28,947 nucleotides of DNA from a virus: positions 1-28,947 of the IMG/VR virus record IMGVR_UViG_3300025759_013899; one strand, written 5' to 3'. Positions 1,853 to 28,947 of this stretch are shown here, piece after piece. The stretch's first letter is position 1. The number at the start of each line of letters is the position of its first letter. The notes beneath the pieces were generated by a model, which ran no database searches, was not told where the DNA came from, and worked only from the letters and a program-made list of their open reading frames with translations. Made by a program: the position numbers and the translations under genes.

Positions 1853-1864
1853 AAAGGACTCCTT
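1853..1864. promoter_or_regulatory. Bidirectional Shine-Dalgarno segment between divergent start codons
   Basis: The 12 bp AAAGGACTCCTT separate the minus-strand ATG (1852) from the plus-strand ATG (1865). Read on the plus strand it gives AAAGGA 6 bp before ATG 1865. Read on the minus strand it gives AAGGAG 6 bp before ATG 1852. One imperfect palindrome therefore serves as ribosome-binding site for both genes, and no room is left for promoters between them. Confidence 0.75.
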
Positions 1865-4703: not shown

Positions 4704-4717
4704 TGAAAATCCTTATT

Positions 4718-6223
4718 ATGATTCATATTAATAGAAGACAGCTAGCAGAGGCTAGCCTTATGTTAGATGGAGAAGATTTCTCCTTAGGGGACTACCCCTT
4801 CTATCACGCCCTATACGAAGGCGAGTGGCCTAGCACTTTACTAATGTGCGGCCGTCAAGTTGGTAAGTCTGTTAGTGCAGCTGCTTTCAGTGTTTGTGAA
4901 AGCGTTGCAATACCTCACTTTAAAACACTGTATATAGCTCCAACGCTAAAGCAGACTTCTACTTTTTCGAACACTAGAGTATCTAAGTTAGTGCGTCATA
5001 GCCCTGCAGTAAAAGAGCTAATGGGAGCAGTAACTTCTGATAATGTGTTTTTAAAAGTATTAGGTAATGGAAGTGAGTTATTATTTAACTATGCTTCCGA
5101 TGATCCTGACAGAGTACGGGGTGTATCTGCCGATAGAGTTATTTATGACGAGGTGCAGGACATAGACTACGAAGCTGTAGTGCCTGTAGTAAACGAATGT
5201 CTCGCCAACTCGAAGTATGGGTACATCTCTTATATGGGAACACCTAAGACACAAGAAAACACCATACAGTACATTTGGGATAATAGCTCTCAAAGTGAAT
5301 GGTGTATAAAATGTGATTCATGTGATAAGTATTCCTTCTATAGAGACGTTAAAGGAGTAGGTAAGAAAGGTATACTTTGCTTACACTGCTCCTCTTACGT
5401 TAACCCTGTTAATGGTTTATGGGTAGACATGAAAGAAAACTATTATACAAAAGCTTTTCATGTCCCCCAAGTTATCCTGCCTGCTAATCAGGAAGAGACC
5501 CGATGGAAACGTATACTTAACAAATTAGATACCTACTCCGATAGCAAGTTCAAAAACGAAGTACTTGGTGTTAGTGACTCCGTTGGATCTCGCTTAATAT
5601 CTCAAGACGAACTTCTCAGGGCATGTAAGCCCTGGCAATCTCCCACAGGTTTTGTTTGTGGGGGTGTCGACTGGAGTGGAGGAGGATCTAAAGGTGTAAG
5701 TAGAACTGTTTCTTGGGTCTTTTCTAGGAATCCTGGAGGCAAGTTTATCTGCCACCACTACTACATCTATAAAGATATGAATCCTGTAGATGCTGTAGAA
5801 ACTATAGCCAGAACTTTCATAGAGAAGAACGTGACCTTAGTTATAGGGGATGCAGGTGAAGGTGCGCTAGCTAACTCTTTGTTAACTAAGCGCCTAGCAG
5901 GCAAACCTGTCTACCAACTTCAATATGGATCTAACTCCAAACCATTAACATGGAATGGGGTAGATAGATATCTAGCAGACAGGACTACTTTAATAGATTG
6001 CTTTTTTCTAGACATAAAGCAGGGCAAGGTACAGTTTCTAGCTACAGCAGAGATGCAAGAAGCTTTTGATGACTTCTTGTCTCTCTACGAAGAAACTATG
6101 CCTTCTGGCAAGAAAGTCTGGAGACATTCACCTAATGCACCTGACGATTGCTTACATGCTGCAGTTTTTAGCTGGGTAGCGTGTAAGATACTTAGTCATG
6201 ATTTAACCTTTTACCAGAAGTAG
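4718..6223 (+). CDS. terL: Terminase large subunit (packaging ATPase and nuclease)
   Basis: The 501-aa protein drives DNA into the procapsid and cuts the concatemer. Walker A is CGRQVGKS (44-51) and Walker B is the DE in RVIYDEVQD. The RNase H-like nuclease has Asp318 (GVDWSGG), Asp378 (IGDAGEG) and Asp476-Asp477 (DDCLHAA). Between them lies a cysteine cluster, Cys196, 199 and 202 then Cys221 and 224, that looks like the zinc ribbon of lambda gpA-type terminases. I chose ATG 4718; the in-frame TTG 4703 overlaps the MoxR start, and a later ATG at 4760 has an AGAGG upstream, so the exact start is uncertain. No obvious small terminase gene is adjacent. It is a plus-strand, presumably late, gene between minus-strand genes. 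Confidence 0.95.
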   Translation: MIHINRRQLAEASLMLDGEDFSLGDYPFYHALYEGEWPSTLLMCGRQVGKSVSAAAFSVCESVAIPHFKTLYIAPTLKQTSTFSNTRVSKLVRHSPAVKELMGAVTSDNVFLKVLGNGSELLFNYASDDPDRVRGVSADRVIYDEVQDIDYEAVVPVVNECLANSKYGYISYMGTPKTQENTIQYIWDNSSQSEWCIKCDSCDKYSFYRDVKGVGKKGILCLHCSSYVNPVNGLWVDMKENYYTKAFHVPQVILPANQEETRWKRILNKLDTYSDSKFKNEVLGVSDSVGSRLISQDELLRACKPWQSPTGFVCGGVDWSGGGSKGVSRTVSWVFSRNPGGKFICHHYYIYKDMNPVDAVETIARTFIEKNVTLVIGDAGEGALANSLLTKRLAGKPVYQLQYGSNSKPLTWNGVDRYLADRTTLIDCFFLDIKQGKVQFLATAEMQEAFDDFLSLYEETMPSGKKVWRHSPNAPDDCLHAAVFSWVACKILSHDLTFYQK

Positions 6224-9533: not shown

Positions 9534-12500
9534 TAAAAGTCTAACCTTTCGTCCCAAGCATCAATGATATCGCTTATATCGTATATAGTAACATCGCTAG
9601 CTTTAATACCGGGTTTTAAAAGTGTTTTTACGTGAGGTACTTTTCTTCTTACTGAAGAGTACTTTAGAGAATTGTCTGCGGAATCACCCATCCGCTTGAG
9701 GCGGCCTGCAGTTTCTCTAGAAAACTTAGTAGTTTTACTAAGCAAGTTAGATAATACATCAGGCCACATCACTATTAATATCTTGGACTTACCTGACTTT
9801 CTTCTAGAGTCATTGTATTCTGCATAGGACAACCCACAATCTAAATCTAGCAACTTAAATCTATCCACGTTATCCGCTAGTAGAGTTCTGATAGCAGTAG
9901 ATCTAGCAGTACTACCTGGGCGCTGATATTCTACCCTACAGGATAGCACTTGATCCAATAGATCCTGTGCATGAGTACTGGTAACTATACGACTAATAAG
10001 ACTAATCTTTTTCTTAACCACTCTTCTGATATAGTCATGCGGATCTCTACCTATCTCTGCTATCAAAGCAGCAGATATAATTACGCCGTCTAAAAATCTA
10101 GATGGCACTACAGCAACTCCAGCGTATAATGCTAAGGCATCTTTAGCCTTACTATCGTTGTAGAATAGCCTCAAAGCATATAAGTGGTCTAAGATGCTCT
10201 TAGCTCTGCTATACATACCCACACTTAAGTTTCTTCGGAAATGGCATATAGTGTTTTCTCCAAAGACCTCTTCTAGTACAGTATGAGGTTCAGGCTTATC
10301 CTCTACCCTTACAGTCTGTAGTTGCATAAATCGGGATATGTCAGCTTCGTCTCTTAGGTAGTTTATTGAGCAAGCCCATACCTGACATTTTAGTACATAC
10401 ACAGTAGCTTCTTTACTATCTACGTTACCTCTAGTAATAATACTTTGCCTAGAGTTAGTTAGCTGCCTTACATCTACTAAGAATTCTCTTACAGCCCTAC
10501 TATGCCTATCATCTCCTTTATCTTCGAATTCATCTAAGGCTACCCCTAAACCACATCTATTAGCATCTTTTCTAATACCTGCTACTGTATAACTAGTTTG
10601 AACGTCTGTTACACATTCTAGGAGTCTAAATTTAGGGTCTTTCCCCGCCACTAAAGATAGCAACTTTGATTTACCACTACCTCGCTGACCATTTAACAGC
10701 GTATATAACTGTCTAGGTAAGCAGCCTGAAATAGGATTTAGCATCATAGCCGCAGCTAAGTACTCACAATCTTCTATGCCCCCATCCATAAGCCACCCTA
10801 GGTTTATGGCACTGACTAAGAAATCGAAAGTTTCTTCTAAATCTACTTCTCTCCCAGCAGTTAGATCATGCGCAGAGTTTATCTCAGTACTCCACTTAGC
10901 TCTCACAATATTAAATACATAATTACCCAATCGAGGTCCATCTAGTAAATCCCAACGAAGCTCTCCAGTATCTTGGTATCTACCTAAATAAACATCGCTG
11001 CCATTAACAACAGCCCATACTTCTTCGGGACCATCTCCTAGATCCACCTCTATATAATGAGCACCTGCTTTTAACTCTTCTAGACTGGTCAGTGTCGGTA
11101 GTTCAGAAGCTAACCCATCTATTGCTATCTCCATATACCTCTTTAAAGTGGAGTTTAACTCTATTAACGAAAGAGGTCTGGTTGTCTTACCTACTTTTTT
11201 AGTAGACAATATTCTAGGTATACCTACGTTACTTTTTAACCAAGTAGATACAGGACCTAAGTCTATAGCCATCTTCCCAAATAACTCATTAGACCTAGAA
11301 ATACGCCACTCTCTAGGCTCCCGCTTTTTTCTATGCCAAGCACGTATCATAGTTTCCGCATTAGAACTCTCTACACCTACAAAATAGAAGTCGTCTCTTA
11401 AGGCCTGCGATACCCTAGATATAAAACCTTCTTCGCTGTCATCTTGACCCACTACCAGTTCTAGCAAAGTACCTAAGGCCAAAGGAACATGGTTAACTAA
11501 CTCTAAGCAAAATAATCTCTGAGAATCAGAGTCTCTTAAGCAAGAGCCATTACTAGCTACTAACTGCTTTACTTCCTGTACGTCTTGAGTATCTACTTTG
11601 GCTAAGTCTTCAAGAGTGCATGAAACTAGCCATTTATAGGCGGCTGTGAAGTGAGTTCTAATGTAGGTATTACTTCCATAAGTAGTGTGCTGGTTAATTA
11701 CAGATAACCAGCAGTCCCATCCATGCTTTTCTATGGCTTCATGGGGGTCTTTAGCAGTTACCTCTTCTGGCCAATCAAAAACTTTACAGGATAGTGTAGT
11801 ATTCTTTAGTATAGCCTTAGTAATGCCGTTACCTCCATGATTGGGGTGATCAGCTAGAATAAGGATATTGCTTATTGAACAATTTCTTTTTAATAAGTCA
11901 GCCGAAGTAGCTCCGGCACCTCCGATACCTAGAACTATATCATAGGTAACTCCATCCAAGTAATTCGATAAGTGGGCCAAAGCATCGAACTCCCCCTCAA
12001 CTAAAATAGCAGATGCTTTTGATTTAGCGGATTTACCTAGGCTACCCACAAAGTTAGCTAAGCCTAGAAACCCTATATCAGATTCTAAGTCATCCTTTAT
12101 GAATAATTCATCTTTAATACCAGGGTTAGGATTTAAGAAGTCTGATCGTATTTTAAATCTACTTATCTCTGTAGGGGTCTTGTGGTAGAAGTAAACTAAC
12201 GCTCCCATATTTTTAGGGGTCAGCACATCCTTAGTATACTCATACACCTCTTTAGTTAGGTTTATTTTTTTATTAACTAAAGCACTAGAAGGTAAAACTC
12301 CTATAGGCAGATTCTTAAACTTAGAAGCCGCTATACCCCGTTTCTCTAAATAGGAAACGCACTTTTGAGCGAATATATATTCTTGGGAAGTTCTATCCTC
12401 AGCTGCTTCTTGCAATATTTTATTACACGCATATGCAAACTCGTTTTTTACAACATGCCGTGTTTCTAGAGTGTGGAGGTCTTTTTCTAGGCTCTTGGGA

Positions 12501-12810
12501 AAGCTCTTTACTCCTTTAGCCCTAAGTAGTCTTGCTACCCCAACCCAAGATAGTTTAGATATGGTGGATATAAACTTAAGAGGGTTTGATTCATACCTCT
12601 CACAACCAAAACATTTAACAAAGCCTTTGTCGGGTACTATCCAACAGGAAGGTCTTGAATCTATATGCCCAGGAAAAGGGAACAGCCATGCAAGGATCTA
12701 CCCTTTATTGACCAAGAGCCTCCTGCCCCTGCATGACTTAGTATTTCTTTCCATTGTGTTAAGGATATATCTGACCATAGGGCTTTATAATGGATTTGAT
12801 CCATCTTCAT
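9533..12810 (-). CDS. Primase-helicase (CHC2 zinc finger, TOPRIM, P-loop ATPase) with an apparent one-base frameshift
   Basis: The long frame (about 12700 to 9533) encodes a TOPRIM primase core (EGEFDAL near 11998, LADHPNHGGNG) and a P-loop helicase (Walker A GQRGSGKS near 10690, Walker B VALDEFED, sensor WACSIN, SRF). Upstream it continues without a stop through CWIVPDKGFVKCFGCE, a DnaG-type zinc finger, but has no start codon. The start and the first cysteine lie in another frame: ATG 12810 gives MKMDQIHYKALW...WSIKGRSLHGCS. Joining the frames at about 12674-12682 gives C-x5-H-x17-C-x2-C (codons at 12684, 12667, 12613, 12604), whose H-x17-C-x2-C part matches DnaG spacing. One missing base in the CCC/TTTT run (coding strand) would explain it, as sequencing error, real mutation or recoding. 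The gene overlaps nuclease A upstream and polymerase downstream and makes primers and unwinds DNA at the fork. Confidence 0.85.
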
Positions 12811-13612
12811 TGTTGCTGTTCTCTTTCTCACAGAGATTCCTGAACTCACACCAATTACAATGTCTGCCTTTTTCTGCTTTGTACCCCTGTAAGAGCTTAG
12901 AACTTGTTTTGTTTATATACTGAATAACTGGGTTAGTTTGTACATAAACAGAACTCCTAAGTATTTTGTTTGGGTACCAAGTTAGTTCACCTGAGGTAGT
13001 AGAGTAGATAGCAGATTGTACTGATGCTAGGTCATATTTACTGTGGAGCAAAATTCCATAACTCTCTAGCTGTATAGAGTAGTGGTCTACACTTTTACAT
13101 CTACCAGTCTTTATGTCAATGGCTATTGCGTGCTTTTTACCACCCTTTTCTATAATTAAAATTCGGTCCAAAACTCCTCTAAGTATTGATTTATTATTCC
13201 AAAAATCAGTAGACTTAAAGTCGGGTAGAACAGCTAGACGTAGTTCAGATTCATCTAAAATAATATTGTTTTTAGACTTAAAATCCTTCATACGCTCTTC
13301 AAAGTTATCTATCTGTCTAGACATACTTTTAATTTTAATTTTATTTTTAGTGGTTTTCGGCACTACCTTAAAAGCCTCTAACTTAGCGGTAGGCCTATCT
13401 TTTCCTTTCTGCTGTAATTCAGCATATTTATGAGCCGCGGAACCTAGTTCCAAAGCAGTATTATCTACTACTACTTTTTCATCTTCTTTTAAGGCAGGTC
13501 TGTTTACATACTGATATACAAATTTTTGAGAGCAAGAGTCTAACACACCTAGCTTACTAGGGCTCCAAGGCATAAAATCTAAGGCCGCAGAGCTAAAAAA
13601 AGCGGTATCCAT
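12785..13612 (-). CDS. Cas4-like PD-(D/E)XK nuclease A
   Basis: The 275-aa protein is a RecB/Cas4-type nuclease. The sequence shows His61 (GSAAHKYAE), Asp149 (RGVLDRI), Asp166-x-Lys168 (AIDIKTG) and Gln181 (QLESYG), the standard order for this fold. Cys27 together with Cys252, Cys255 and Cys261 (CNWCEFRNLC) fits the four-cysteine Fe-S site of Cas4-like and AddB-like nucleases. Start ATG 13612 has GGAGG 5 bp upstream. It overlaps the primase start by 26 bp and follows the SSB-like gene, so it acts in replication, recombination or host DNA breakdown. A second related nuclease is encoded at 16536-17291; the two differ strongly in sequence, so they are not a recent duplication. No CRISPR array is nearby. 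Confidence 0.88.
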   Translation of the reverse strand: MDTAFFSSAALDFMPWSPSKLGVLDSCSQKFVYQYVNRPALKEDEKVVVDNTALELGSAAHKYAELQQKGKDRPTAKLEAFKVVPKTTKNKIKIKSMSRQIDNFEERMKDFKSKNNIILDESELRLAVLPDFKSTDFWNNKSILRGVLDRILIIEKGGKKHAIAIDIKTGRCKSVDHYSIQLESYGILLHSKYDLASVQSAIYSTTSGELTWYPNKILRSSVYVQTNPVIQYINKTSSKLLQGYKAEKGRHCNWCEFRNLCEKENSNNEDGSNPL

Positions 13613-13650
13613 ACCGCCTCCTTTCTTTAAATAGTAAAAGTAAAGTATAT

Positions 13651-14248: not shown

Positions 14249-14764
14249 TTAGCTCTCTTTCTTTTTGTTAGCGTTAGCGTTAGCGTTAGCGTTAGCGTTT
14301 TCGGTTACCTCAGATTGAGGTATAACCTTATTAATTGAAAATTCCACTTCTGTAAAGCTTTTTATTGATATTTTTATGCTCCTAGATTTAAGCCCTCCTA
14401 GGGCATCTAGAACTCTATAAATAGCTTCTACTTTGTGGCTAGATTCACCAGGTATTTCTAGTGAGAATAGAGTATTGTCAAGAATATTAAAACCATGTAA
14501 GGTGTAAATATCCTTGCAAGGATGTACCGAGTCTCTATAAGGATTATAAAGGCAGTCTATGCAGCCTGTACCTGTAGTACTCGTTACTCCGTCATTAGAT
14601 TCACAGCCAGATGGGTGCTTTCTATATACTTGTACTTCCTCCAATACCACATCTATGCTAGAGCCGTAGGTTTGGGAAGGAGAATATATAGAGTTAGGAA
14701 GGTAGCCATTATCCATGGGAGTACTTATGGACAACAGTTCCCTTGAATTAGACATAGTAGACAT
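14249..14764 (-). CDS. Small Cys-motif protein, probable SSB-associated phage protein
   Basis: The 171-aa protein has a putative metal-binding segment, GCIDCLYNPY...HPCKD, near residues 70-86, followed by beta-rich sequence (IYTLHGFNILDNTLFSLEIPG) and a helix. This order, a CxxC...C segment followed by a strand-rich region, resembles small phage proteins often encoded next to SSB-like proteins; I cannot name the family with confidence. The C-terminus is an Asn-Ala repeat encoded by a 6-bp tandem repeat, then KKKES. Starts at 14764 or 14755 are possible. Its 5' end overlaps the divergent sigma gene head to head by up to 38 bp. It is 4 bp upstream of the SSB-like gene and almost surely cotranscribed with it. 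Confidence 0.65.
   Translation of the reverse strand: MSTMSNSRELLSISTPMDNGYLPNSIYSPSQTYGSSIDVVLEEVQVYRKHPSGCESNDGVTSTTGTGCIDCLYNPYRDSVHPCKDIYTLHGFNILDNTLFSLEIPGESSHKVEAIYRVLDALGGLKSRSIKISIKSFTEVEFSINKVIPQSEVTENANANANANANKKKES
14267..14296. repeat. Five tandem copies of GTTAGC
   Basis: Five perfect 6-bp units (GTTAGC on the plus strand) are followed by a degenerate sixth. On the minus strand they encode an alternating Asn-Ala tail of the 14249-14764 protein. Because the unit is 6 bp, a change in copy number alters tail length by two residues without a frameshift. Confidence 0.95.
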
Positions 14765-15401
14765 ATACTACACAGCCCTTTCTAGGGTTGAAATACTGGA
14801 CAAAGCCAGTGAAAAAAGTTTACTCATTACATATAAGAATACCTCCTGCAAAAAAACAAAAGAAAAAATAAAAGATACGGTAATTAAGTCTAACTTAAGA
14901 CTCGTTTTTGGTTTTGCCAAAAACTTTTGGGACCAGAAAGATCCTGTAAAACTACAAGAGCTTATAGCCCAAGGAAACATAGGATTACTATTGGCTTTGG
15001 ATAAGTTTGAACCTAAGTACAATGTTAGGTTCTGTACTTATGCCGGGCATTGGGTTCTTATGTCTATGCGCAAAGCTCACATAGGTTTAATAAAATCCAA
15101 TGGTAAGCCTTTGATAATAGAAGAAGAAACCTCAATACCTGAAAAGCCCTATGTACAGGATTTTGACTCTGCCATTGAAAACGTACAGCAGAGGCATATC
15201 TTAAATACTTGGCTTAGATTCCTAAGTGAAAGAGAGCGTTATATAATAATAAACTCTTTTTCCCTTAAGGATGCTGCAGCTGCTAGCAAGTCCCTTAGAG
15301 ACATGGCTAGCACTCTCAAACTGTCTAGCGAGCGGGTTAGACAGCTTAAAACCCAAGCCTTAGATAAGTTAGCTTTGTGGTTAACTTATCATATAGACTA
15401 A
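14727..15401 (+). CDS. Sigma-70-type RNA polymerase sigma factor
   Basis: The 224-aa protein is a compact sigma factor. Residues 50-118 are a well preserved region 2, with NLRLVFGFAK, then LIAQGNIGLLLALDKFE and RFCTYAGHWV, close to the RpoD/RpoH pattern for core binding and -10 recognition. Residues 155-215 are region 4 (LSERERYIIINSF, then SLRDMASTLKLSSERVRQLK), a helix-turn-helix for -35 contact. Region 1.1 is absent and region 3 is short. ATG 14727 with GGGAG 5 bp upstream is preferred to ATG 14715. It is the only plus-strand gene between minus-strand replication genes; it overlaps one neighbour head to head and the ParB-like gene tail to tail by 4 bp. It probably directs late transcription, by the phage polymerase or by host core. 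Confidence 0.92.
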   Translation: MDNSSLELDIVDIYYTALSRVEILDKASEKSLLITYKNTSCKKTKEKIKDTVIKSNLRLVFGFAKNFWDQKDPVKLQELIAQGNIGLLLALDKFEPKYNVRFCTYAGHWVLMSMRKAHIGLIKSNGKPLIIEEETSIPEKPYVQDFDSAIENVQQRHILNTWLRFLSERERYIIINSFSLKDAAAASKSLRDMASTLKLSSERVRQLKTQALDKLALWLTYHID

Positions 15402-17299: not shown

Positions 17300-19180
17300 C
17301 TATCGTAAAGCTTTTATAGGTATATTAGCTTTGCTGGTTTCAGCATCTAGAATGCAGTCAGTGTCAAAAGGTTCAATACCTCTATTCATACAATAAACTA
17401 CTTTAGTACAAGTTACACACTCTACTGACTTGCTCATCATGCTACTTGCATCTATTTTGGTTTGCAATAGTTTAATTACGCTATGAGCTAGGCTATCTTT
17501 TATAACAATAACCTGCACCAAAAGGGATTTAAATCCTTTAGCTCTTATGCCATAGTTTCTATCCAATGACTGAAGCCAGTGATCTAATCCCCAAGATAAC
17601 TCACAGTATACCATGACAGGTGCTTTGAAAGTTACACCAATACCCATAGATATTTGAGCTACTATTACCGCCCCCTCTAGCTCATTAAATTTCTTCTCGC
17701 AATCAGCATGGCTTTTAGTAGTGGAGTCATACCTAAGAATAGGTACATCTAATCTACCTAACTTAGTAACTAAGGTGTTTAATGTCCATTGGTGTTTTGC
17801 CCAGACTATAACTTTTTTACCGTTGGCTACATGTGAACTGACTAATTCTATACAAGAATCAATTACTTCCGTTGTTCCTACTAAACCTACATCTCTACCT
17901 GGGTCCTTAGTTTCCACAGAGCATTTAGATGTATAAGGGTTTATTTCGTTAGCTACGCAGTTTTGTAACTTAGGGCAGGCATCACAAATTGTAGGATCTT
18001 TCCGGCTCTTATATATAAAGCCCGAAGATAATTGAGCTAGCCTAGTCATAGCTACCAGAGGGTTATCTACTTCAGATAAAGCTAGTTCACCTACTTGTAT
18101 AGGAAGCTCCTTAACTACTTGGTTATATAGCTTTTTTGTTTTAGAGCTAGGTTCTATCTCTATAGTCTGGATAACTCTTTCAGGTAAGTCTAAACACTCC
18201 TCGGCAGTTCTTCGTAAAGATATAGAAGTTACTAGCTCATTAAGTTGGTCTAGGTTTTTCCAGCCAATAACTATGTGCTTGTTAAAGGGGCTTTTTAACG
18301 TATAGGTGTTTTGAAACTGCCAGCTATTAGGAACTAAAAACTGGCCTAAGGCTTTTAGCTGCCCCCATAAATGCATAGGAGAGCCTAAGGAAGGAGTACC
18401 ACTTAGTAGTAACCTCCTGTTGACTACTTTATTACTAAGCATCTCCAATACAGCTTTAGTTTTACCACTCCTAGGGGATCTAAGAGAGTGGCTTTCGTCT
18501 AGAATTACATCTGTGTATGGTACTACCTCTTGCAGCAGTTCTTTAGCTACTCTACATGTATCATAGGTAACCACTAAGCCTAGAGACTTAGGGTTTTGTA
18601 AAGCTTTTTCTATCTGAGATTTCCTAGCTTTACCTGTTTTAGTAATAGGTGTTAAGGTAAATTCCTGTTTACTATGAAACTCCATTTCGTTTTTCCAAGT
18701 AAATTGATTTACTTTTAAGGCTACTATTAGCCAGAACCTTTTACTTGCAGTATTGTTAACATGCATAATTAGATCACAACCTATTTTGGTCTTACCTAAG
18801 CCAGGATCTAAAAATAGGCCTACTCTAGGGGTATGTATAGCCAGGGCTAATGCACTTTTTTGATGGTCGTACAAAGGTACCTTAGGTACGTAGCCATCCA
18901 GGTTATCACTAGCTATACTAGACTCTGCCTTTTTTAGGTCGCAATCTAGTTGTGCTATACTAGGTAGTTTATTAAAGGTAGCTATGTCTTCTAGCTCTTT
19001 AATGTCATCTAGAACAAATCTGCCGAAAGGAAACATGCCTGGAGCAAACCATGTAGATTTATCCTTGCCATACGCCCTCATTCCAAATATGTTATTTACT
19101 ACAGGTACATCTTTAGGGGTTACTCCAGTAATGACTATTACTGGATCCCCTCCTACGCTGTTGGTTGTTTTTACTTCCAT
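17300..19180 (-). CDS. SNF2-like superfamily 2 DNA helicase/translocase with two cysteine modules
   Basis: The 626-aa protein has a helicase core with motif I LDPGLGKT (124-131), motif II DESH, motif III LLLSGTP, and a motif VI-like segment QSLDRNYGIRAKG, in line with SNF2/SWI2-type enzymes. A substrate-binding N-terminal part (1-100) precedes it. Two cysteine modules with exactly the same spacing, C-x2-C-x5-C-x11-C, occur at residues 399-420 and 588-609, each ending in a Pro-Tyr/Phe-x-x-x-Cys pattern; they probably bind zinc or an Fe-S cluster. The start ATG 19180 has AGGAGG 5 bp upstream. It heads the minus-strand replication operon and is divergent from portal. The likely role is remodelling or branch migration during replication and recombination. 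Confidence 0.9.
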   Translation of the reverse strand: MEVKTTNSVGGDPVIVITGVTPKDVPVVNNIFGMRAYGKDKSTWFAPGMFPFGRFVLDDIKELEDIATFNKLPSIAQLDCDLKKAESSIASDNLDGYVPKVPLYDHQKSALALAIHTPRVGLFLDPGLGKTKIGCDLIMHVNNTASKRFWLIVALKVNQFTWKNEMEFHSKQEFTLTPITKTGKARKSQIEKALQNPKSLGLVVTYDTCRVAKELLQEVVPYTDVILDESHSLRSPRSGKTKAVLEMLSNKVVNRRLLLSGTPSLGSPMHLWGQLKALGQFLVPNSWQFQNTYTLKSPFNKHIVIGWKNLDQLNELVTSISLRRTAEECLDLPERVIQTIEIEPSSKTKKLYNQVVKELPIQVGELALSEVDNPLVAMTRLAQLSSGFIYKSRKDPTICDACPKLQNCVANEINPYTSKCSVETKDPGRDVGLVGTTEVIDSCIELVSSHVANGKKVIVWAKHQWTLNTLVTKLGRLDVPILRYDSTTKSHADCEKKFNELEGAVIVAQISMGIGVTFKAPVMVYCELSWGLDHWLQSLDRNYGIRAKGFKSLLVQVIVIKDSLAHSVIKLLQTKIDASSMMSKSVECVTCTKVVYCMNRGIEPFDTDCILDAETSKANIPIKALR

Positions 19181-19248: not shown

Positions 19249-20982
19249 ATGTTGGGAGACTTGCCTAATATAACCGCACCTCCAGGTACAGGTACTTACA
19301 GTGACCCAATGAGACTTTGGGCACATAGTTTCTCACCTAGAAACTTAAAGCAACTATTTAGATGGACTGAATACTTATACTATAATTCTGCCCAGATATT
19401 TGCAGGTGTGCGTAAGTATGCAGAATACCCTATTACTGAGATAGAGTACCTTTCTAGTAGCGATAAAATAACTTCTATCTACAAAAAATTGCTAGAGGAT
19501 GTACTAGGTATAAAGCAGCATTTAATAAAGGCCTCGATAGATCTGCATGTATACGGCAATTCTTTTGTATCACTACACACCCCCTTTAGAAGGCACTTAA
19601 GGTGTTCTAAGTGCAATCATATGGAATCTGCTTCTACACTAGACTTTAAGTACAACCCTAACAAAGCTACCTTTAAGCATACTTGCGCTGATTGTGGGCA
19701 CACTGGGGAATCTGTTGTCGTAGATAAAAAAGAATTAGCACCAGACAAGTTAAACATTATTAGGTGGGATCCTAAGCTAATACAATTAAATTATAATAAC
19801 ATAACCAATGAAACAGAGTACTATTTAAGTATTCCCAGCAACTTAAAATCAAAGGTTATGTCGGGAGATAAGCATCTAATACTAACCCTACCCATGAATG
19901 TACTAGAAACAGTAGCTGAAGGAGAGTTATTTAAGTTTAACAAAGATGCTATATTCCACATGAAAGCAGATGCCCCTTCTGGTGTAGATAGTGGTTGGGG
20001 ATACCCACCGCTAGTAGCCTGTATGCCTCTTTTTTACCATGCAAGTGTACTAAGAAAAGCTAATGAATCTATCGCTTTAGAAAGAATAGTACCCATGCGT
20101 GTAATGCATCCTCAGGCTATATCTGGAAATGCAGATCCCATTCTAAGCTTATCTATGGGTAAGTTTATGCAGGAGGTGGAGGATAATCTTAAGAAGTGGC
20201 GTAGAGATCCTAATCACATTATGATGAGTCCAGTAGCTGTAGGCGTATCTCAGGTGGGAGGAGAAGGTAGAGCTCTCATGGTAAATGCGGAGATACAGCA
20301 GGCAGAGGATAACATAATAGCAGCTATGGGCTTTCCTAAAGAGTTTGTATACGGAGGACTTAGCTACACAGGTAGCAGTGTTACGCTTAGAATGCTTGAG
20401 AATCAACTAGAGTCTTCTGTGTTTCAGCTTTCTAGATTGCTAACTTGGATTACCGATAAAATATCCAACTATCTAAATTGGGATAAGTGCAAAGTATCTT
20501 TAGGTGACTTTAGAATGATTGATGATATACAACAAAAGCAACTAGTTATGCAAATGTTTCAGATGGGTATGGTGTCTAAAACTACTATGGCAGAAGCTCA
20601 TGGCATAAATATGAGTGAAGAGCGGGAAAAAATTAAACAAGAGAACCTGATGGATGCTAGATTCCAAAAAGAATTAGAACTAGATATGATGGATCTACAA
20701 AAAGATATGAGTCAGCAGGCTAGACAAATGGCTGCAGAACAACAGGGCGGAGGTCTTAACTACGACCAACAAGCTGTTATTGGGCAAGCAGAGCAGTTAG
20801 CTATGCAGCTATTGCAGATGGATCCAGGATCTAGAAAATCACAACTAGCGAGTTTACAGTCAGAAGATTATGTGATGTACTCTGTAGTTATACAAAGAAT
20901 GGAACAGCTACAACTAGATCAAAAAAACCAAGCCCTTCAGCAAGCAGGTATGGCTGGTGGTGGCGGACAACCTATGATGTAA
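19249..20982 (+). CDS. Portal protein with inserted zinc ribbon
   Basis: The 577-aa protein fits a phage portal, the dodecameric ring at the capsid vertex. Evidence is the length, the plus-strand late position, the N-terminal PGTGTYSDPMRLWAHSF region, the wing and stem segments (GSSVTLRMLENQLESSVFQL, LTWITDKI) and the Gln- and Met-rich C-terminal crown with long helices (QKELELDMMDLQKDMSQQARQ). A zinc ribbon, Cys119-x2-Cys122 and Cys146-x2-Cys149, is inserted in the wing. The C-terminus ends in a Gly-rich GGGGQPMM tail. The start has AAGGAG 7 bp upstream. It is the first gene after the candidate promoter at 19206 and is followed 11 bp later by a small gene. The family name rests on overall pattern, so some uncertainty remains. 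Confidence 0.85.
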   Translation: MLGDLPNITAPPGTGTYSDPMRLWAHSFSPRNLKQLFRWTEYLYYNSAQIFAGVRKYAEYPITEIEYLSSSDKITSIYKKLLEDVLGIKQHLIKASIDLHVYGNSFVSLHTPFRRHLRCSKCNHMESASTLDFKYNPNKATFKHTCADCGHTGESVVVDKKELAPDKLNIIRWDPKLIQLNYNNITNETEYYLSIPSNLKSKVMSGDKHLILTLPMNVLETVAEGELFKFNKDAIFHMKADAPSGVDSGWGYPPLVACMPLFYHASVLRKANESIALERIVPMRVMHPQAISGNADPILSLSMGKFMQEVEDNLKKWRRDPNHIMMSPVAVGVSQVGGEGRALMVNAEIQQAEDNIIAAMGFPKEFVYGGLSYTGSSVTLRMLENQLESSVFQLSRLLTWITDKISNYLNWDKCKVSLGDFRMIDDIQQKQLVMQMFQMGMVSKTTMAEAHGINMSEEREKIKQENLMDARFQKELELDMMDLQKDMSQQARQMAAEQQGGGLNYDQQAVIGQAEQLAMQLLQMDPGSRKSQLASLQSEDYVMYSVVIQRMEQLQLDQKNQALQQAGMAGGGGQPMM

Positions 20983-23201: not shown

Positions 23202-26200
23202 ATGGCTATTAATACAAGACGTCTGTTTTTAACCCCCGAAGAGAGACAAAAACTTCTACGTGAGAAAACAATGGAGGAGTTAAAGGTCTATTTTCCTATA
23301 ATAGGCACTCACCACACTATAGAAGCGGATAACTTTCAGGTTAAAGAGAAGCCTGTAAGCTACAAAGACCACAAAAAAGCCCTGTTTAAAGGAGGATCTC
23401 TTTACGAACCCGTAAAAGCAGACTTAGTGGTGAAAGACAAAGAGGGGGCTGTAATTCAGCGTAAAAAAGGGCATACAGTAATGCACCTACCCAATGTTAC
23501 TTCTCATAATACTTTTGTAGTAGGTGGTAATGAATACGCTTTGAAACACCAGTTACGTACAAAACCTGGGGTATATACTCGTAGAAGAGGCAGTGATGAA
23601 TTAGAGTCTAGCTTTAACTTAGCTAAAGGAGCTAACTTTCGTTTATCACTAAATCCTGAAAAGGGTGGTATGCAAATGGAGTATGGATCTTCAAAGATAC
23701 CTTTGTACCCGATATTAAAACAAATGGGTTTACAAGATAACGATATATCTAAGTACTGGGGTACTAAATTAGTAGATAGAAATAGAGATCTTTACAAAAA
23801 TAAAGAGGAAGCATCGGTTAATAAGTTATTTAGTAAAATAGTGCCTAGAGCAGAGCAAGCATTAGCTACTAACTTAAAAGATAAATCTGCTGCTATATTA
23901 AGGGCCTATGATAATACTGTATTGGATGAAGAAACCACTGCTTCTACCTTAAAAAAAGGCTTTGCAAAAGTAACTCCAGAAAGCCTACTGGTAGCTAGTA
24001 AGAAGTTATTAAAAGTATATAATCAAGAGGAGGAAGAGGATGAACGGGATAGCTTAGAATTCCAAAAAGTAGTAGGACCTGAAGATATCTTTAAGGAACG
24101 CATAGCACTTAAAACCAGAGAGCTTCAATGGAAGATACGCAACAAGCTTGATTTAGCACCAAAAGTAGACCTTAAAAAGATAATGCCTACAGTAGCTACT
24201 GCAAATGAATTAAAAAAGTTTTTAAGTACTGCGCAGTTAGCTACTTTGCCATCGCAGATAAATCCAGTAGAAGTTATAGATAGCGCTTTAGCTGTAACTA
24301 GACTAGGCGAAGGTGGTATATCTAGCGGAATGGCAGTACCTGCCTCTGCCCGTAAGTTGCATAGTAGTATGCTTGGAATAATAGATCCGTTTAGAACCCC
24401 GGAATCTGCTAATACAGGAATAGACCAAAGATTTAGCATGAGAGCTCAAAGAGATGAGGCAGGCAATCTCTATGGAACATTTAAAGATAAAAAGGGTAGG
24501 ACAGTAGAAATTCCTGCTAAAGATATAGCTAACAAAGTAATAGCCTTTGCAGATCAAGATGTAAAGTCAGGTAGAGTAGATGCTATGGTTAGGGGTAAAA
24601 TAGGTAAAGTTTCGCCCAAAGAAGTAGATTACTATATAGATAAATCTGTAGACATGTATACATTAAATACCAATATGGTGCCTTTACTAGATAGTACCCA
24701 AGGAAACCGAGTAATAATGGGGGCTAAGATGGTAGGGCAAGCCATGCCTTTAGTCCATAGAGAAAAGCCACTAGTTACTAGTGGAGTTCATGGGGATGGT
24801 GGAGTAGAAGATTCCTTCGAACATATAGTAGGAACAAGCAGCACAAAGGGTATAACAAGCCAAGTTGATGGCACAGTAGCCAAAGTAACTAAGGATGAGA
24901 TTCATATAAAAGATGCTGCAGGTAAAATCCACATAGTAGAAGTACCTGAAGATATGCCTTTAGCCTCCAAAACTTTCTTAACGGGTGAAGTAAAAGTTAG
25001 ACCAGGAGACAAGGTTACTAAAGAGAAAACCATACTTATGGATACTAACTTCACTAAAGACGGCACTATGGCTTTAGGCAAAAACCTAAAAGTAGGTTAC
25101 TTAGCTTATCATGGTTTAAATAGTAATGACGCTGTAGTAATGTCTAAAGGTGCTACTGAAAAAATGGCCTCTATAAACATGACTAAGTATGTTATAGAGG
25201 ATGACAGAGATACCGTTATAGATAAAAATAAGCATTCAGCTAACTTCCCTAGACTATTTACAAAAGATCAATATAACAAATTGGATAGGGGCATAGTTAA
25301 AGTTGGCACTAAGCTAAAGGCAGGAGATCCAATAAGTACTGTTCTTAGAAAAAGAACCCCTAGCATAGAGAATCAGATATTAGGAAAAGTACATAAATCT
25401 TTACGTCAAGAGTACTCTGATTCTAGCGATGTTTGGGATAGGTCCTCAGAAGGTGAAGTTATCGCAGTAGAAAAAGAAGGAAAAAGAACTACTGTGGTGG
25501 TTAAAAGTATTGAGAAGCTTAAGATAGGGGATAAGGTTAGTAATAGATATGGAGGTAAAGGGGTAATTAGTAAGATAGTAGATGACGGAGACATGGTGCA
25601 GGATGAGGCAGGAAAGCCTATTGATATACTATGGAGTTCTTTAGGGGTAGTTAGCCGCATAAACCCTTCTCAAGTAATAGAGACAGCGGCAGCTAAGGTA
25701 GCAGAGAAGACAGGTAAGCCTCTAGCTATACAGTCTTTTAAAAAGCGTAATAATGTTAAGTGGGTTAGAGATCTCATGAAGAAGCATGGAGTAAAAGATA
25801 AAGAGACTGTTTTCGATCCTATCACAGGTAAGAAGATACCTAACATCATGGTAGGGCCTCAATATACCTATAAATTATTTAAATCATCAGATACTAACTA
25901 TGCAGCTAGAGGTCTTAACGGTGGTTATGACGTTAACGATGCTCCCAGTAAGGGAGGGGTTACTGGGGCTAAAGGAACAGGTATAATGGAAATTAATGGG
26001 TTATTAGCTCATGATGCTAGAGACATACTCAAAGAAAACGCTATCTTAAAGGGAACTAGGAATACAGAGTTCTGGAGAGCCTTTCAACTAGGTAGACCTT
26101 TACCCCCTCCAAAATCAAACTTTGCTTTCGATAAGTTTAAAGGAATGTTAGCGGGTGCTGGATTAAGATTTAAACAAGAAGGCAACATGATGTCTATGGC

Positions 26201-27557
26201 CCCTATGTTAGACGAAGAAGTTAGGAAAATGTCTAACGGAGAAATAGAAAATAGCCGTATGGTTATTTCTAAAAACCTTAGGAGCGAAAAAGGCGGCTTG
26301 TTTGATATAGGAAAAACAGGAGGTGTTGTAGGCAATAAGTGGACACATATAGAGTTACCTGAGCCCGTAGTAAACCCTTTATTTAAAGATGCTAGTCGTA
26401 GGTTACTTGGACTTACTGAAAAAGGGTTAGACGAAGAGTTAGCCAGTAAAGGCGGCGACTATATAAAGGGTAAGCTAAATGAAATAGATGTAGAATCTAA
26501 AGTAAAAAGTTTAAGGGCTCAGTTAAATACCAAAAAAGGTTCCGACAAAGATAATGTATACAAGCAAATAAAAGCCCTAAAAGCGTTAAAATCTAACAAC
26601 TTAAAGCCTGGGGATGCCTATACAATGAAAGCATTTCCAGTGCTACCTCCGAAGCTAAGACCCATAGTCCCTGGTGCTAAAGGAGACTTACTTATCTCTG
26701 ATTTAAATCACGTCTACAAAGATTTAATCTTAGCCAAACAGAAATTACAAGAAGCCAAAGACTTAGGGCTACCTGACAACGATGTAAAAGATATGCGTAA
26801 GCATATGATGGATGCTGCAGGAGCAGTTATAGGGACAAGCCCTCCAGTGTCTGCTAATCTGCAAGCAAAGCAGGTTAAGGGTATAGTTAACACCATCTCT
26901 GGAACTAAAACAGGGTTCTTTAATGGTAAGATACTGTCTAGGCGTTTGGATTTCACTGGTAGAGGAACTGCTGCTCCCGATCCAAGTTTAGGTATGGATG
27001 AAGTAGGCCTACCTGAAACCATGATGTGGGATATGTATTCTCCTTTTGTGATAAAAAATTTAGTTAAAGGAGGGTATTCGGCTATCCAGGCTAAGCAAAT
27101 GGTAGATAATAAAAACTCTAGAGCCCGAGAAGAGTTAATGATAGAGTCTAACAGACGTCCTGTTATACTTAATAGAGCGCCTTCTTTACATAGATTTAAT
27201 ATGATTAGCTTTAAACCTAAGCCTGTAGAGGGTACTACTATTCAAGTAAACCCCTTTATGGAGGATGGTATGAACCTAGACTATGACGGAGATGCTTTGC
27301 AAGTACATGTACCCGTAACTACTGGGGCTGTTAATGACGCTAAAAAAATGTTCTTATCTAACAATGTCTTAGGAGATAGAAATCCTAACACTATCTTAGC
27401 TTATCCTAAGCAAGAAGCTATGGCTGGATTGTACAAAGCTACTTTGGGCTCCCCCTCAGGGAAAGTCCATAAGTTTAAAACAACTCGGGATGCCTTGGCT
27501 GCCTATAGACGAGGTGCTTTAAAGACGACTGATAATGTGGAGATAGAAGATGAATAG
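23202..27557 (+). CDS. Multisubunit-type RNA polymerase: beta fused to the N-terminal half of beta-prime
   Basis: The 1451-aa protein spans two subunits. The beta part (1 to about 1010) has TFVVGGNEYALKHQLRTKPGVY, IDPFRTPESANTGI near residue 394, NRVIMGAKMVGQAMPL, HGLNSNDAVVMS (Asp643) and GDKVSNRYGGKGV, with Lys778 and Lys786 at the spacing of E. coli Lys1065 and Lys1073. The beta-prime part has KGGLFD near 1027, LPPKLRP, clamp-helix sequence SDLNHVYKDLILAKQKL (from 1166), RRLDFTGRG (1247-1255), NRAPSLHRF (1324-1332) and NLDYDGD (1358-1364), with all three Mg-binding Asp. It ends about 85 residues later, so bridge helix and trigger loop are absent. The beta-prime zinc ribbon is missing. A second polypeptide should supply the rest. 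The gene overlaps the next by 8 bp and lies among virion genes. Confidence 0.95.
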   Translation: MAINTRRLFLTPEERQKLLREKTMEELKVYFPIIGTHHTIEADNFQVKEKPVSYKDHKKALFKGGSLYEPVKADLVVKDKEGAVIQRKKGHTVMHLPNVTSHNTFVVGGNEYALKHQLRTKPGVYTRRRGSDELESSFNLAKGANFRLSLNPEKGGMQMEYGSSKIPLYPILKQMGLQDNDISKYWGTKLVDRNRDLYKNKEEASVNKLFSKIVPRAEQALATNLKDKSAAILRAYDNTVLDEETTASTLKKGFAKVTPESLLVASKKLLKVYNQEEEEDERDSLEFQKVVGPEDIFKERIALKTRELQWKIRNKLDLAPKVDLKKIMPTVATANELKKFLSTAQLATLPSQINPVEVIDSALAVTRLGEGGISSGMAVPASARKLHSSMLGIIDPFRTPESANTGIDQRFSMRAQRDEAGNLYGTFKDKKGRTVEIPAKDIANKVIAFADQDVKSGRVDAMVRGKIGKVSPKEVDYYIDKSVDMYTLNTNMVPLLDSTQGNRVIMGAKMVGQAMPLVHREKPLVTSGVHGDGGVEDSFEHIVGTSSTKGITSQVDGTVAKVTKDEIHIKDAAGKIHIVEVPEDMPLASKTFLTGEVKVRPGDKVTKEKTILMDTNFTKDGTMALGKNLKVGYLAYHGLNSNDAVVMSKGATEKMASINMTKYVIEDDRDTVIDKNKHSANFPRLFTKDQYNKLDRGIVKVGTKLKAGDPISTVLRKRTPSIENQILGKVHKSLRQEYSDSSDVWDRSSEGEVIAVEKEGKRTTVVVKSIEKLKIGDKVSNRYGGKGVISKIVDDGDMVQDEAGKPIDILWSSLGVVSRINPSQVIETAAAKVAEKTGKPLAIQSFKKRNNVKWVRDLMKKHGVKDKETVFDPITGKKIPNIMVGPQYTYKLFKSSDTNYAARGLNGGYDVNDAPSKGGVTGAKGTGIMEINGLLAHDARDILKENAILKGTRNTEFWRAFQLGRPLPPPKSNFAFDKFKGMLAGAGLRFKQEGNMMSMAPMLDEEVRKMSNGEIENSRMVISKNLRSEKGGLFDIGKTGGVVGNKWTHIELPEPVVNPLFKDASRRLLGLTEKGLDEELASKGGDYIKGKLNEIDVESKVKSLRAQLNTKKGSDKDNVYKQIKALKALKSNNLKPGDAYTMKAFPVLPPKLRPIVPGAKGDLLISDLNHVYKDLILAKQKLQEAKDLGLPDNDVKDMRKHMMDAAGAVIGTSPPVSANLQAKQVKGIVNTISGTKTGFFNGKILSRRLDFTGRGTAAPDPSLGMDEVGLPETMMWDMYSPFVIKNLVKGGYSAIQAKQMVDNKNSRAREELMIESNRRPVILNRAPSLHRFNMISFKPKPVEGTTIQVNPFMEDGMNLDYDGDALQVHVPVTTGAVNDAKKMFLSNNVLGDRNPNTILAYPKQEAMAGLYKATLGSPSGKVHKFKTTRDALAAYRRGALKTTDNVEIEDE

Positions 27558-27789
27558 CCTACGCAAAGCATATCTAATAGGTAAGCAACTTTATTTAAGT
27601 AAGGTAGCTGCAGAACTTGATTCAGAGAAAAATCTTACAAGTGTTCTAAAGGCTCTAGTATCTAATACCCCAGAAGAAGACTCTGAAGAAGTAGATGAGG
27701 TATTAGGGGGTGAAGAACGTAAGTCTAAGGCTACCTGGGGCGATAAGATTAACCTAGAGCCTAGCTCTGCACAGGGGATAGAAGTATGA
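27550..27789 (+). CDS. Small hypothetical protein after RNA polymerase
   Basis: The 79-aa protein starts inside the end of the polymerase gene (8-bp overlap) and ends in an ATGA overlap with the next gene, so the three are translationally coupled. It begins with a helix (SLRKAYLIGKQLYLSKVAAEL) that resembles the start of the next protein, followed by a highly acidic segment (EEDSEEVDEV). It could be a small polymerase-associated or virion protein. I do not recognise it. Confidence 0.75.
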   Translation: MNSLRKAYLIGKQLYLSKVAAELDSEKNLTSVLKALVSNTPEEDSEEVDEVLGGEERKSKATWGDKINLEPSSAQGIEV

Positions 27790-28628
27790 ATAATGAAGAA
27801 GCATTACTAAAAGCCTATAAGCTAGGTTGTGAGCTAGCGTACAGCTCTGATAGGGAGAAAACTGCCTTTATAGCTCCCGTAGTTAATGCAGCTAAGTTCA
27901 TGTTTATGGGAGGTAATTTAGGTAGAGCAGGTAGCGTGGCTTCAAAAATAAGCCCTCATTGGGTCGGAGCTCCTTTAGGCTTTGGTGCAATGGAAGCAGC
28001 TATGGCAGAAGAAGGAGACAAGGTAAATGCTTTCGGCAGAGGTATGGTCTCAGGTTTATTATTTAATCCTTTAATGTCTATCGGAGGTAAAATTGGAGGT
28101 AGATTATTAGCTCCAGGATTAAAGGGCATGGGTACTGGAAGCTCTGCAGCTAAATTTATGAGAAGAGTTGGGTTTAGTCCTGAAGCCGCCCAGCATATGC
28201 AGCTAGCCAGGGGTTTAAATAAACAGCTGCATAGCGGCATGCTTAAAAACACGCAAAGAGCTTTGCAGTCCGGTAATTATACTGGAGGCAATATAAAGAA
28301 GTATCTAGATAAAATAGACTCAAAAATGGTACCCGAAGCTTTAAGAAATGATTTATTAAAACTACAAAACCAATTTAGTGGTAGAGTAGCCGCTAGTCAA
28401 CAATCTGCTGCTTTACAAGACCTACAGAACTTCAGCAAGAAGCTGTATGAGGTAGGTTACGGCTCTGGAGGAAAGGCAGCTCAGAGAGCATTGAAAGCTA
28501 CTAGAGTAGCAAAGGGTGTAGGTATGGCTGCAGGAGGTATGGGACTAGGTATGATGGGTAGCCATCCGATAACTGCTTCTATGGATAATTCCCAAGCTTC
28601 TTACTTTAATGAATACGGAGGTCACTAA
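27786..28628 (+). CDS. Hypothetical Gly/Ala-rich protein, possible virion or membrane-active protein
   Basis: The 280-aa protein begins with EALLKAYKLGCELAYSSDREKTAF, a helix that matches the N-terminus of the preceding gene product (L-x-KAY-x-x-G-x-x-L). The rest is Gly/Ala/Met-rich with hydrophobic glycine-zipper-like stretches (GRGMVSGLLFNPLMSIGG and a second one at the C-terminus), separated by a helical, polar part (residues about 115-220). This resembles ejected or membrane-interacting virion proteins, but that is inference. The following gene starts 1 bp after its stop, with GGAGGT upstream. Confidence 0.7.
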   Translation: MNNEEALLKAYKLGCELAYSSDREKTAFIAPVVNAAKFMFMGGNLGRAGSVASKISPHWVGAPLGFGAMEAAMAEEGDKVNAFGRGMVSGLLFNPLMSIGGKIGGRLLAPGLKGMGTGSSAAKFMRRVGFSPEAAQHMQLARGLNKQLHSGMLKNTQRALQSGNYTGGNIKKYLDKIDSKMVPEALRNDLLKLQNQFSGRVAASQQSAALQDLQNFSKKLYEVGYGSGGKAAQRALKATRVAKGVGMAAGGMGLGMMGSHPITASMDNSQASYFNEYGGH

Positions 28629-28629
28629 C

Positions 28630-28947
28630 ATGAACTTAGAACGAGTATATAATAATTTAACCAAAGAAGCCTCTTCCACTCCATTACTATTAGCTATAGG
28701 CGCAGGTGCAGGTATTGGAGGTCTTTATGGTGTGGGAGATTCTAAATATAATTATCACTCCGAGTTACTGTCTCCTAGCGTAGGGTCTAGGGCTGTACAG
28801 GGGGCAGGTACTGCTGCAGCAGGATTAACTAGTTACCAAGCCTTAAGAAAGCTTGGCCTAAATCCTTTACTTTCAGGGTTAGGTAGCTTAGGGGCTGGGT
28901 TTGCTACCGCAAAAGCTTTAAAGCCCAAAGGGTTAATTATGAATGAC
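28630..28947 (+). CDS. Hypothetical Gly/Ala-rich protein, N-terminal part (runs off the right edge)
   Basis: The frame opens at ATG 28630, 9 bp after a GGAGGT, and is open for 106 codons to the end of the window. The protein starts MNLERVYNNLTKEASSTPLLL and then has Gly/Ala-rich hydrophobic stretches (AIGAGAGIGGLYGVG, GLGSLGAGFATAKAL). It resembles the preceding protein in composition and is probably another virion or membrane-active component of the same operon. No family is recognised. Confidence 0.7.
   Translation, partial: MNLERVYNNLTKEASSTPLLLAIGAGAGIGGLYGVGDSKYNYHSELLSPSVGSRAVQGAGTAAAGLTSYQALRKLGLNPLLSGLGSLGAGFATAKALKPKGLIMND

What the first reader, a model, noticed from the sequence alone, without database searches (positions are those of the whole stretch)
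23202..27557. Phage RNA polymerase as a single beta/beta-prime-N fusion that lacks bridge helix and trigger loop
The sequence shows a complete, compact beta subunit and the N-terminal half of beta-prime in one frame, with the beta lysine pair (Lys778, Lys786) and NxDxDGD intact. It stops about 85 residues after the catalytic loop, near where cyanobacterial rpoC1 ends. Fused full-length beta-beta-prime (Helicobacter) and fully split phage polymerases (phiKZ group) are known to me; a fusion combined with a break inside beta-prime is a different arrangement. A separate beta-prime C-terminal protein must exist if the enzyme works.
Basis: partly seen in the sequence, partly recalled or inferred. 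Interest (0 to 1): 0.85.

Follow-up and report, generated by a model that had tools for sequence, protein, structure and literature searches.

The report
Phage RNA polymerase, fused then split
This virus fragment encodes a bacterial-type RNA polymerase whose first large subunit and the front half of the second are one protein, while the back half (with the moving catalytic parts) is a separate gene that in close relatives lies right where this fragment ends; the layout runs through a whole lineage of phages, including cultured ones, and the papers I searched do not describe it.

Summary
Confirmed. Window 23202-27557 is one intact 1451-aa frame: a compact beta subunit fused to beta-prime-N, with both catalytic motifs, ending 87 residues after the DxDxD loop. 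The stop is real: it sits at the same place in about 60 relatives and is written as TAA, TGA or TAG. The missing half exists. In four relatives (76-79% identity, same gene order) a separate 591-aa gene with bridge helix and trigger loop follows; in two it begins 17-18 bp after the gene in which the window is cut off. The layout (beta-beta'N plus separate beta'C) was found with both halves in 47 records, including cultured Salmonella phage Arash and Vibrio phage D69. In Arash both pieces were detected in virions, but were annotated simply as beta and beta'. Trees place all these enzymes in one phage clade apart from the bacteria sampled. Members are one-piece (beta-beta', ~2000 aa), two-piece (this one) or three-piece; the tree needs one break of beta' and one later re-separation. 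Relatives carry a sigma factor (the window too) and no detectable alpha. Best reading: the large subunit of an alpha-less, sigma-dependent, probably virion-packaged phage RNA polymerase. A new variant of a known kind; the split is near the cyanobacterial one but looks independent.

The parts
23202..27557 (+). beta-beta'N fusion subunit of a phage RNA polymerase, 1451 aa
   Evidence: conserved full length at 76-79% identity in L001-L004 and ~33% in Arash and D69
23202..26153 (+). beta part (aa 1-~984)
   Evidence: alignment to solved beta chains aa 66-989; HMM beta aa 20-985
25533..25559 (+). beta catalytic lysine pair Lys778 and Lys786 (GDKVSNRYGGKGV)
   Evidence: invariant columns
26154..26441 (+). 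short junction and shortened beta' N-terminus; no zinc-ribbon cysteines (aa ~985-1080)
   Evidence: sequence; no CxC..CxxC in this stretch in about 125 phage proteins of the clade, present in E. coli
26442..27554 (+). beta' N-terminal half (aa 1081-1451), clamp/coiled-coil region, rudder/lid and double-psi barrel
   Evidence: fold match of model of aa 961-1451 to beta'/RpoC1
27273..27293 (+). Mg-binding loop NLDYDGD (aa 1358-1364)
   Evidence: sequence; invariant D1360, D1362, D1364
27550..27789 (+). conserved 79-aa ORF of unknown function between fusion and the place of beta'C
   Evidence: homologues at the same place in L001-L004
27786..28628 (+). conserved 280-aa ORF of unknown function (Ala/Gly-rich), between fusion and the place of beta'C
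   Evidence: 39-46% identity to syntenic ORFs in L001-L004; no family
28609..28947 (+). 113+ aa ORF cut by the contig end; in L003 and L004 its homologue is directly followed by the beta'C gene
14715..15401 (+). phage sigma-70 factor (regions 2 and 4), candidate specificity subunit
   Evidence: PF04542 4e-8, PF04545 1.5e-7; homologue of Arash gp196 and of the D69 sigma
19249..20982 (+). portal protein, syntenic neighbour of the RNAP gene also in Arash and D69
   Evidence: Arash gp204 annotated portal

Best explanation
23202-27557 encodes the large subunit (beta joined to the N-terminal half of beta') of a phage-encoded multi-subunit RNA polymerase. It assembles with a separate ~590-aa beta'C protein, whose gene in this phage most likely lies just beyond the end of the contig and which supplies F-loop, bridge helix, trigger loop and jaw. 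The large subunit holds both double-psi barrels, so both halves of the active site are folded in one chain; the junction between beta and beta' is only a short connector. Joining them plausibly replaces the assembly role of the alpha dimer, which these phages lack. A phage-encoded sigma-70 factor (window 14715-15401) gives promoter recognition. The enzyme is probably packaged in the virion and injected to start phage transcription. Shown: fusion, conserved stop, existence and content of the beta'C gene in relatives, synteny, sigma genes, no detected alpha, virion detection in Arash. Inferred: beta'C in this very phage, assembly, activity, sigma use, packaging here.
For: Sequence and family evidence. 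beta'C next door: PF04998 hit in all four close relatives in ~591-aa ORFs, with EGLSPAEAWIAGDESRSQVIKGQLGTAEPGEM (bridge-helix region), GIRSAQSLSEPLTQMALSSKHG (trigger loop with the conserved His) and the DDC..CxxxxGVCxxC zinc site. The same gene order is retained, with the window contig cut in the last ORF before beta'C. Model of beta'C, pLDDT 76, matches bacterial beta'. No sequence is lost at the break: one-piece relatives read through it. Sigma region 2 in 13 of 14 long relatives, alpha RNA_pol_L over cut-off in 0 of 14 with control 13 of 14. One RNAP set per genome in 6 of 6. Arash virion MS: gp206 had the most spectra (3516, 100% coverage), gp216 1210 spectra, 89% coverage, sigma gp10 467 spectra (PMC10585845).
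Against: The beta'C gene of this phage is not in the record. No biochemistry was found for any member. Arash is only ~33% identical, and its authors note that proteins made in large amounts may simply remain with purified particles. Most relatives are metagenomic fragments, so absence of alpha is firm only for the phage records deposited as whole genomes (Arash, D69). Omega was not searched. The virion-detected sigma in Arash is gp10, not gp196, the homologue of the window's sigma.
Confidence: 0.87

Rival explanations
1. Assembly break, frameshift or recoded stop: the real protein is a one-piece beta-beta' of ~2000 aa and the stop at 27557 is an error or is read through.
For: One-piece relatives exist (54 complete), and five one-piece-type records look broken only because TGA is read as Trp.
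Against: The stop lies at the same residue in about 60 relatives, as TAA, TGA and TAG. The downstream frames are other conserved genes and beta'C starts 0.6-5.1 kb away. Cultured phages have the same layout.
Confidence: 0.01
2. The protein is not a working polymerase subunit any more: a remnant, or a structural or inhibitory protein that kept the fold, for instance one that captures host beta'.
For: Found as a very abundant virion protein in Arash (PMC10585845); no activity has been measured.
Against: Catalytic Asp triad and Lys pair are invariant across the alignment, dN is low against near-saturated dS, and a matching beta'C with trigger-loop His and zinc site is present in 47 records.
Confidence: 0.04
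3. The arrangement was inherited from a cyanobacterial-type or phiKZ-type split enzyme rather than arising within this clade.
For: The break is in the same inter-domain stretch: cyanobacterial RpoC2 residue 15 aligns with phage beta'C residue 25, and the phiKZ-type and cyanobacterial splits are reported to coincide (PMC7598289).
Against: Unsplit one-piece enzymes branch outside the split clade, and the tree needs only one break. Boundaries differ by roughly 10-40 residues. Cyanobacterial beta is separate; phiKZ-type beta is itself cut and those phages have no sigma (PMC7824862).
Confidence: 0.08

Closest known systems
Salmonella phage Arash gp206 + gp216 (OQ632216; PMC10585845) and Vibrio phages D69/D181/D148
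   Same: Same fusion (gp206 1525 aa, ~33% identity over 99% of the window protein), same separate ~606-aa beta'C, portal gene just upstream, phage sigma genes, no alpha found
   Different: Annotated as plain beta and beta', or as hypothetical; fusion and split not remarked on in the paper. Diverged; other genes lie between the two halves
mReC, multi-subunit RNAP-encoding Caudovirales (Weinheimer and Aylward 2020, PMC7481178)
   Same: Tailed phages from metagenomes with alignable bacterial-type beta and beta' that form a clade apart from cells
   Different: The paper describes beta and beta' subunits and mentions fusion only for crAssphage; it required NADxDGD (window has NLDYDGD). Its gp23-type capsid (PF07068) was not found in 14 relatives here, while T4 rings
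phiKZ/AR9-type vRNAP and nvRNAP (PMC7598289, PMC7824862)
   Same: Phage multi-subunit RNAP with beta' cut after the double-psi barrel; virion form known; no alpha
   Different: There beta is also cut, beta and beta' are not joined, usually two enzymes per phage, no sigma in those phages
Cyanobacterial/plastid RpoC1 + RpoC2
   Same: beta' cut in the same linker between barrel and bridge-helix half
   Different: beta separate; break a little further C-terminal; alpha and omega present (own knowledge)
Helicobacter-type fused RpoBC (from my own knowledge) and the one-piece phage RNAPs found here
   Same: beta C-terminus joined directly to beta' N-terminus
   Different: beta' uncut
Yersinia phage YerA41 (MW570730)
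   Same: beta'N and beta'C are separate genes
   Different: beta separate and last in order, beta' keeps the zinc ribbon, long branch outside this clade

Membership tests
Double-psi-barrel multi-subunit RNA polymerase | beta' Mg-binding DxDxD loop | tested here: met
   NLDYDGD aa 1358-1364, three Asp invariant
Double-psi-barrel multi-subunit RNA polymerase | beta barrel lysine pair | tested here: met
   Lys778, Lys786 invariant
Double-psi-barrel multi-subunit RNA polymerase | bridge helix and trigger loop in a partner protein | tested here: met
   Met in relatives: PF04998 and motifs in a separate gene; not in the window record, which ends before it
Double-psi-barrel multi-subunit RNA polymerase | RNA synthesis activity | not testable with these tools
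   needs purified proteins
mReC Caudovirales | RNAP forms a clade apart from cellular RNAP | tested here: met
   100* branch against 6-8 bacterial rows; only bacteria sampled
mReC Caudovirales | gp23-type major capsid protein (PF07068) | tested here: not met
   0 of 14 long relatives; T4 control positive; no capsid gene was identified in the window itself
mReC Caudovirales | TerL of family PF03237 | tested here: met
   window 4703-6223, 26.3 bits over cut-off 22, though GpA_ATPase scores higher
mReC Caudovirales | nests with the published mReC contigs | not testable with these tools
   contig list is in a supplement that could not be read
phiKZ-type jumbo phage RNAP | beta cut into two or three proteins | tested here: not met
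   beta intact, aa 1-~984
phiKZ-type jumbo phage RNAP | beta' cut after the barrel | tested here: met
   exact site differs
phiKZ-type jumbo phage RNAP | two RNAP sets per genome | tested here: not met
   one set in 6 of 6 relatives searched; a second, far diverged set could be missed
phiKZ-type jumbo phage RNAP | no sigma factor | tested here: not met
   sigma-70 in window and in 13 of 14 relatives
Cyanobacterial RpoC1/RpoC2 | separate beta | tested here: not met
Cyanobacterial RpoC1/RpoC2 | identical split site in beta' | tested here: inconclusive
   RpoC2 residue 15 = phage beta'C residue 25; RpoC1 end not aligned residue by residue
Helicobacter-type RpoBC fusion | full-length beta' in the fusion | tested here: not met
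   stops at E. coli beta' ~552
crAss-like single-chain RNAP | both barrels in one chain, highly diverged from cellular sequence | not tested
   The window protein is readily alignable to bacterial RNAP, unlike the description of crAss RNAP in PMC7481178; no crAss sequence was compared

The most novel reading that the evidence does not exclude
A whole phage lineage replaced the bacterial alpha2-beta-beta'-omega core by an alpha-less enzyme that was first fused into a single ~2000-aa chain, then broken once inside beta' to give a two-protein core (beta-beta'N + beta'C), and in one branch cut again between beta and beta'. It works with a phage sigma factor and travels in the virion, so phage transcription can begin with a sigma-dependent RNAP the host did not make. 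The break near the cyanobacterial and phiKZ-type site is convergent, so a shared split site does not prove shared descent.
Probability: 0.55. Interest if true: 0.75.

Novelty: new variant of a known kind. Interest (0 to 1): 0.62.

Why it matters
Arguments about the origin of phage RNA polymerases have leaned on where the subunits are cut: a shared cut after the barrel was used to suggest cyanobacterial descent of phiKZ-type enzymes (PMC7598289). Here the same linker was cut inside a phage clade whose other members carry an uncut beta-beta' fusion, so cut position alone is weak evidence of ancestry. The lineage also offers a natural series (one-piece, two-piece, three-piece) of alpha-less, sigma-bearing RNAPs in which to ask what alpha and the beta-beta' joint contribute to assembly. 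Cultured members exist (Arash, D69), so the enzyme can be purified and tested now, and gp206/gp216-type genes can be annotated correctly.

Tried and rejected
Looked for beta'C inside the window: none. Frameshift or recoded stop: rejected. PHROG hits 24349 and 25354 to full-length beta and beta' were at first taken for phage homologues; several phage-collection hits of that kind are host DNA (e.g. Acinetobacter phage MD-2021a record with rplK-rplL-rpoBC), so they were not used as evidence. L324 first looked like a separate beta | beta' member, but the stop between is a TGA at a Trp column, i.e. a recoded one-piece. AU test that all one-piece forms are one clade: not rejected, p = 0.135; this leaves open where the one-piece forms sit but not the single break of beta'. 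Two earlier runs of that test did not finish. Scoring phiKZ-type beta'N against clade HMMs gave no clear affinity. The models (pLDDT ~76, pTM 0.5-0.6) support fold identity but not domain placement (rmsd ~15 A over full chains).
Full report
What is there. The record is a 28,947-bp IMG/VR virus contig. At 23202-27557 on the plus strand is one open frame of 1451 codons. Pfam finds beta domains (Rpb2_3, Rpb2_6) followed by beta' domains 1 and 2, and nothing of beta' domains 4 or 5. Against solved structures the first ~989 residues align with beta and residues ~1072-1441 with beta' 169-541 (E. coli numbering). Both catalytic signatures are intact: Lys778/Lys786 and NLDYDGD. The junction is short, and the beta' N-terminal zinc ribbon is missing here and in about 125 proteins of the clade.

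The stop is real. The nearest relatives (76-79% identity over the whole length) end at the same residue with TGA, TAG, TAG and TAA. Over the clade 60 complete fusion genes end with TAA 37, TGA 15 and TAG 8 times, 59 of them within 0-8 residues of the profile end. The genes that follow in the window (79, 280 and 113+ aa) are conserved in the same order in relatives and are not beta'.

The missing half. Searching the relatives for the bridge-helix/trigger-loop domain PF04998 gave a hit in all four, in separate ORFs of ~590-610 codons. In L003 and L004 that gene starts 17-18 bp after the homologue of the ORF in which the window is cut off. By synteny the window ends a few dozen bases before its beta'C gene (inference). 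The partner carries the F-loop, bridge helix, trigger loop with its conserved His, and the second zinc site. A model of it matches bacterial beta' (pLDDT 76).

How common. Profile scans of viral contigs, classified with HMMs built here, gave three layouts: one-piece beta-beta'N-beta'C of ~2000-2200 aa (54 complete, 8 cut), beta-beta'N plus separate beta'C (47 records with both; the window and 11 others show the fusion only, mostly because the contig or locus ends too soon), and three separate pieces (about 18). The beta'C gene lies 0.6-5.1 kb downstream of the fusion, median ~1.4 kb. The HMMs were trained partly on Arash and D69, so the independent evidence for beta'C is the Pfam hit and the motif alignment. 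The layout is in cultured phages: Salmonella phage Arash gp206/gp216 and Vibrio phage D69, with the fusion also in D181 and D148, where the match is in two pieces with a homing endonuclease annotated within it.

History. On trees of beta + beta'N + beta'C with bacterial outgroups (FastTree, 102 rows; IQ-TREE LG+C20, 56 rows) all these phages form one clade (100*). The layouts need three changes in all, the least possible. The split forms are one clade (100*), with the three-piece forms nested next to Arash and D69, and one-piece forms branch outside. An AU test did not reject one-piece monophyly (p = 0.135), but under either topology beta-beta'N joining is ancestral to the clade, beta' was broken once, and beta and beta'N came apart again once, given a root between bacteria and phages. 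The break is at the same place in the split forms aligned (E. coli beta' ~552), and one-piece proteins read through it without lost sequence. Cyanobacterial RpoC2 starts close by (its residue 15 matches residue 25 of the phage beta'C) and phiKZ-type beta'N seems to end ~30 residues earlier (from, approximate), so the three breaks look independent.

How it works. The two barrels that make the active site are in one chain, so the core can be assembled from two proteins. Alpha was not found in 14 long relatives while 13 of 14 control genomes rang. Sigma region 2 was found in 13 of 14, and the window has its own sigma at 14715-15401. Only one RNAP set per genome was seen in six genomes. In Arash both RNAP pieces and a sigma (gp10) were detected in particles, gp206 with the most spectra of all proteins (PMC10585845). 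A virion-delivered, sigma-dependent enzyme is therefore the likeliest mechanism; activity, assembly and packaging in this phage are inferred.

What is known. Fused beta-beta' (crAss-like, as cited in PMC7481178; Helicobacter from my own knowledge), fully cut phage enzymes (phiKZ type, PMC7598289, PMC7824862) and an mReC clade of phages with bacterial-type RNAP (PMC7481178) are described. None of the papers found describes a beta-beta'N fusion with separate beta'C, although the Arash genes are published as beta and beta'. The phages here lack a detectable gp23-type capsid, a feature reported for mReC, so I do not file them as mReC; their RNAP may still prove to be sister to or part of that group. 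Verdict: real, functional by all sequence evidence, a new variant of a known kind.

Noticed in passing
L058 9995-16042, L061, L106-L181: One-piece beta-beta' phage RNA polymerases of ~2000-2200 aa (54 complete), mostly with NADFDGD loops; alignable to bacterial RNAP, not described as fusions in the papers found.
   Followed up: partly
L104, L126, L105/L129, L324: RNAP frames of one branch are interrupted only by TGA, mostly at columns where relatives have Trp: TGA is read as Trp, so these phages probably infect hosts with a TGA-recoded genetic code.
   Followed up: partly
L079 ~12341-13393; L136 ~12180-13637; also L143, L147, L154, L156, L176: Large in-frame insertions in RNAP genes; two tested carry LAGLIDADG (and one an intein splicing) domains, the L136 one next to the beta' active-site region: probable inteins.
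   Followed up: partly
L062-L086 (several): Three-piece members: beta, beta'N and beta'C as separate genes, one clade next to Arash and D69.
   Followed up: partly
L099, L100, L101 (Vibrio phages 1.031.O and Va2, Rhizobium phage RHph_Y65): Full-length beta' (1127-1288 aa, with zinc ribbon) with no beta gene found in the fetched surroundings; outside the clade studied here.
   Followed up: no
window 293-1876 (-) and 3540-4703 (-): VWA-like/metallopeptidase-like protein (DUF2201) and AAA ATPase near each other, a MoxR/VWA-like pair, in a phage.
   Followed up: no
window 17300-19180 (-): SNF2-type helicase near the RNAP gene, conserved in relatives; a Swi2/Snf2-type helicase is reported to go with phiKZ-type RNAPs (PMC7824862).
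   Followed up: no
L429 11892-12596 (Arash gp10) and L005 10534-11571 (gp196): Arash has two sigma-like proteins, one detected in virions (gp10) and one (gp196) homologous to the window's sigma: possible early/late sigma switch.
   Followed up: partly
phages collection records CAKLQF020000005, AFYI01000006 and unverified 'phage' contigs: Records labelled phage that hold host rpoB/rpoC (the first with rplK-rplL beside them), i.e. contamination.
   Followed up: partly
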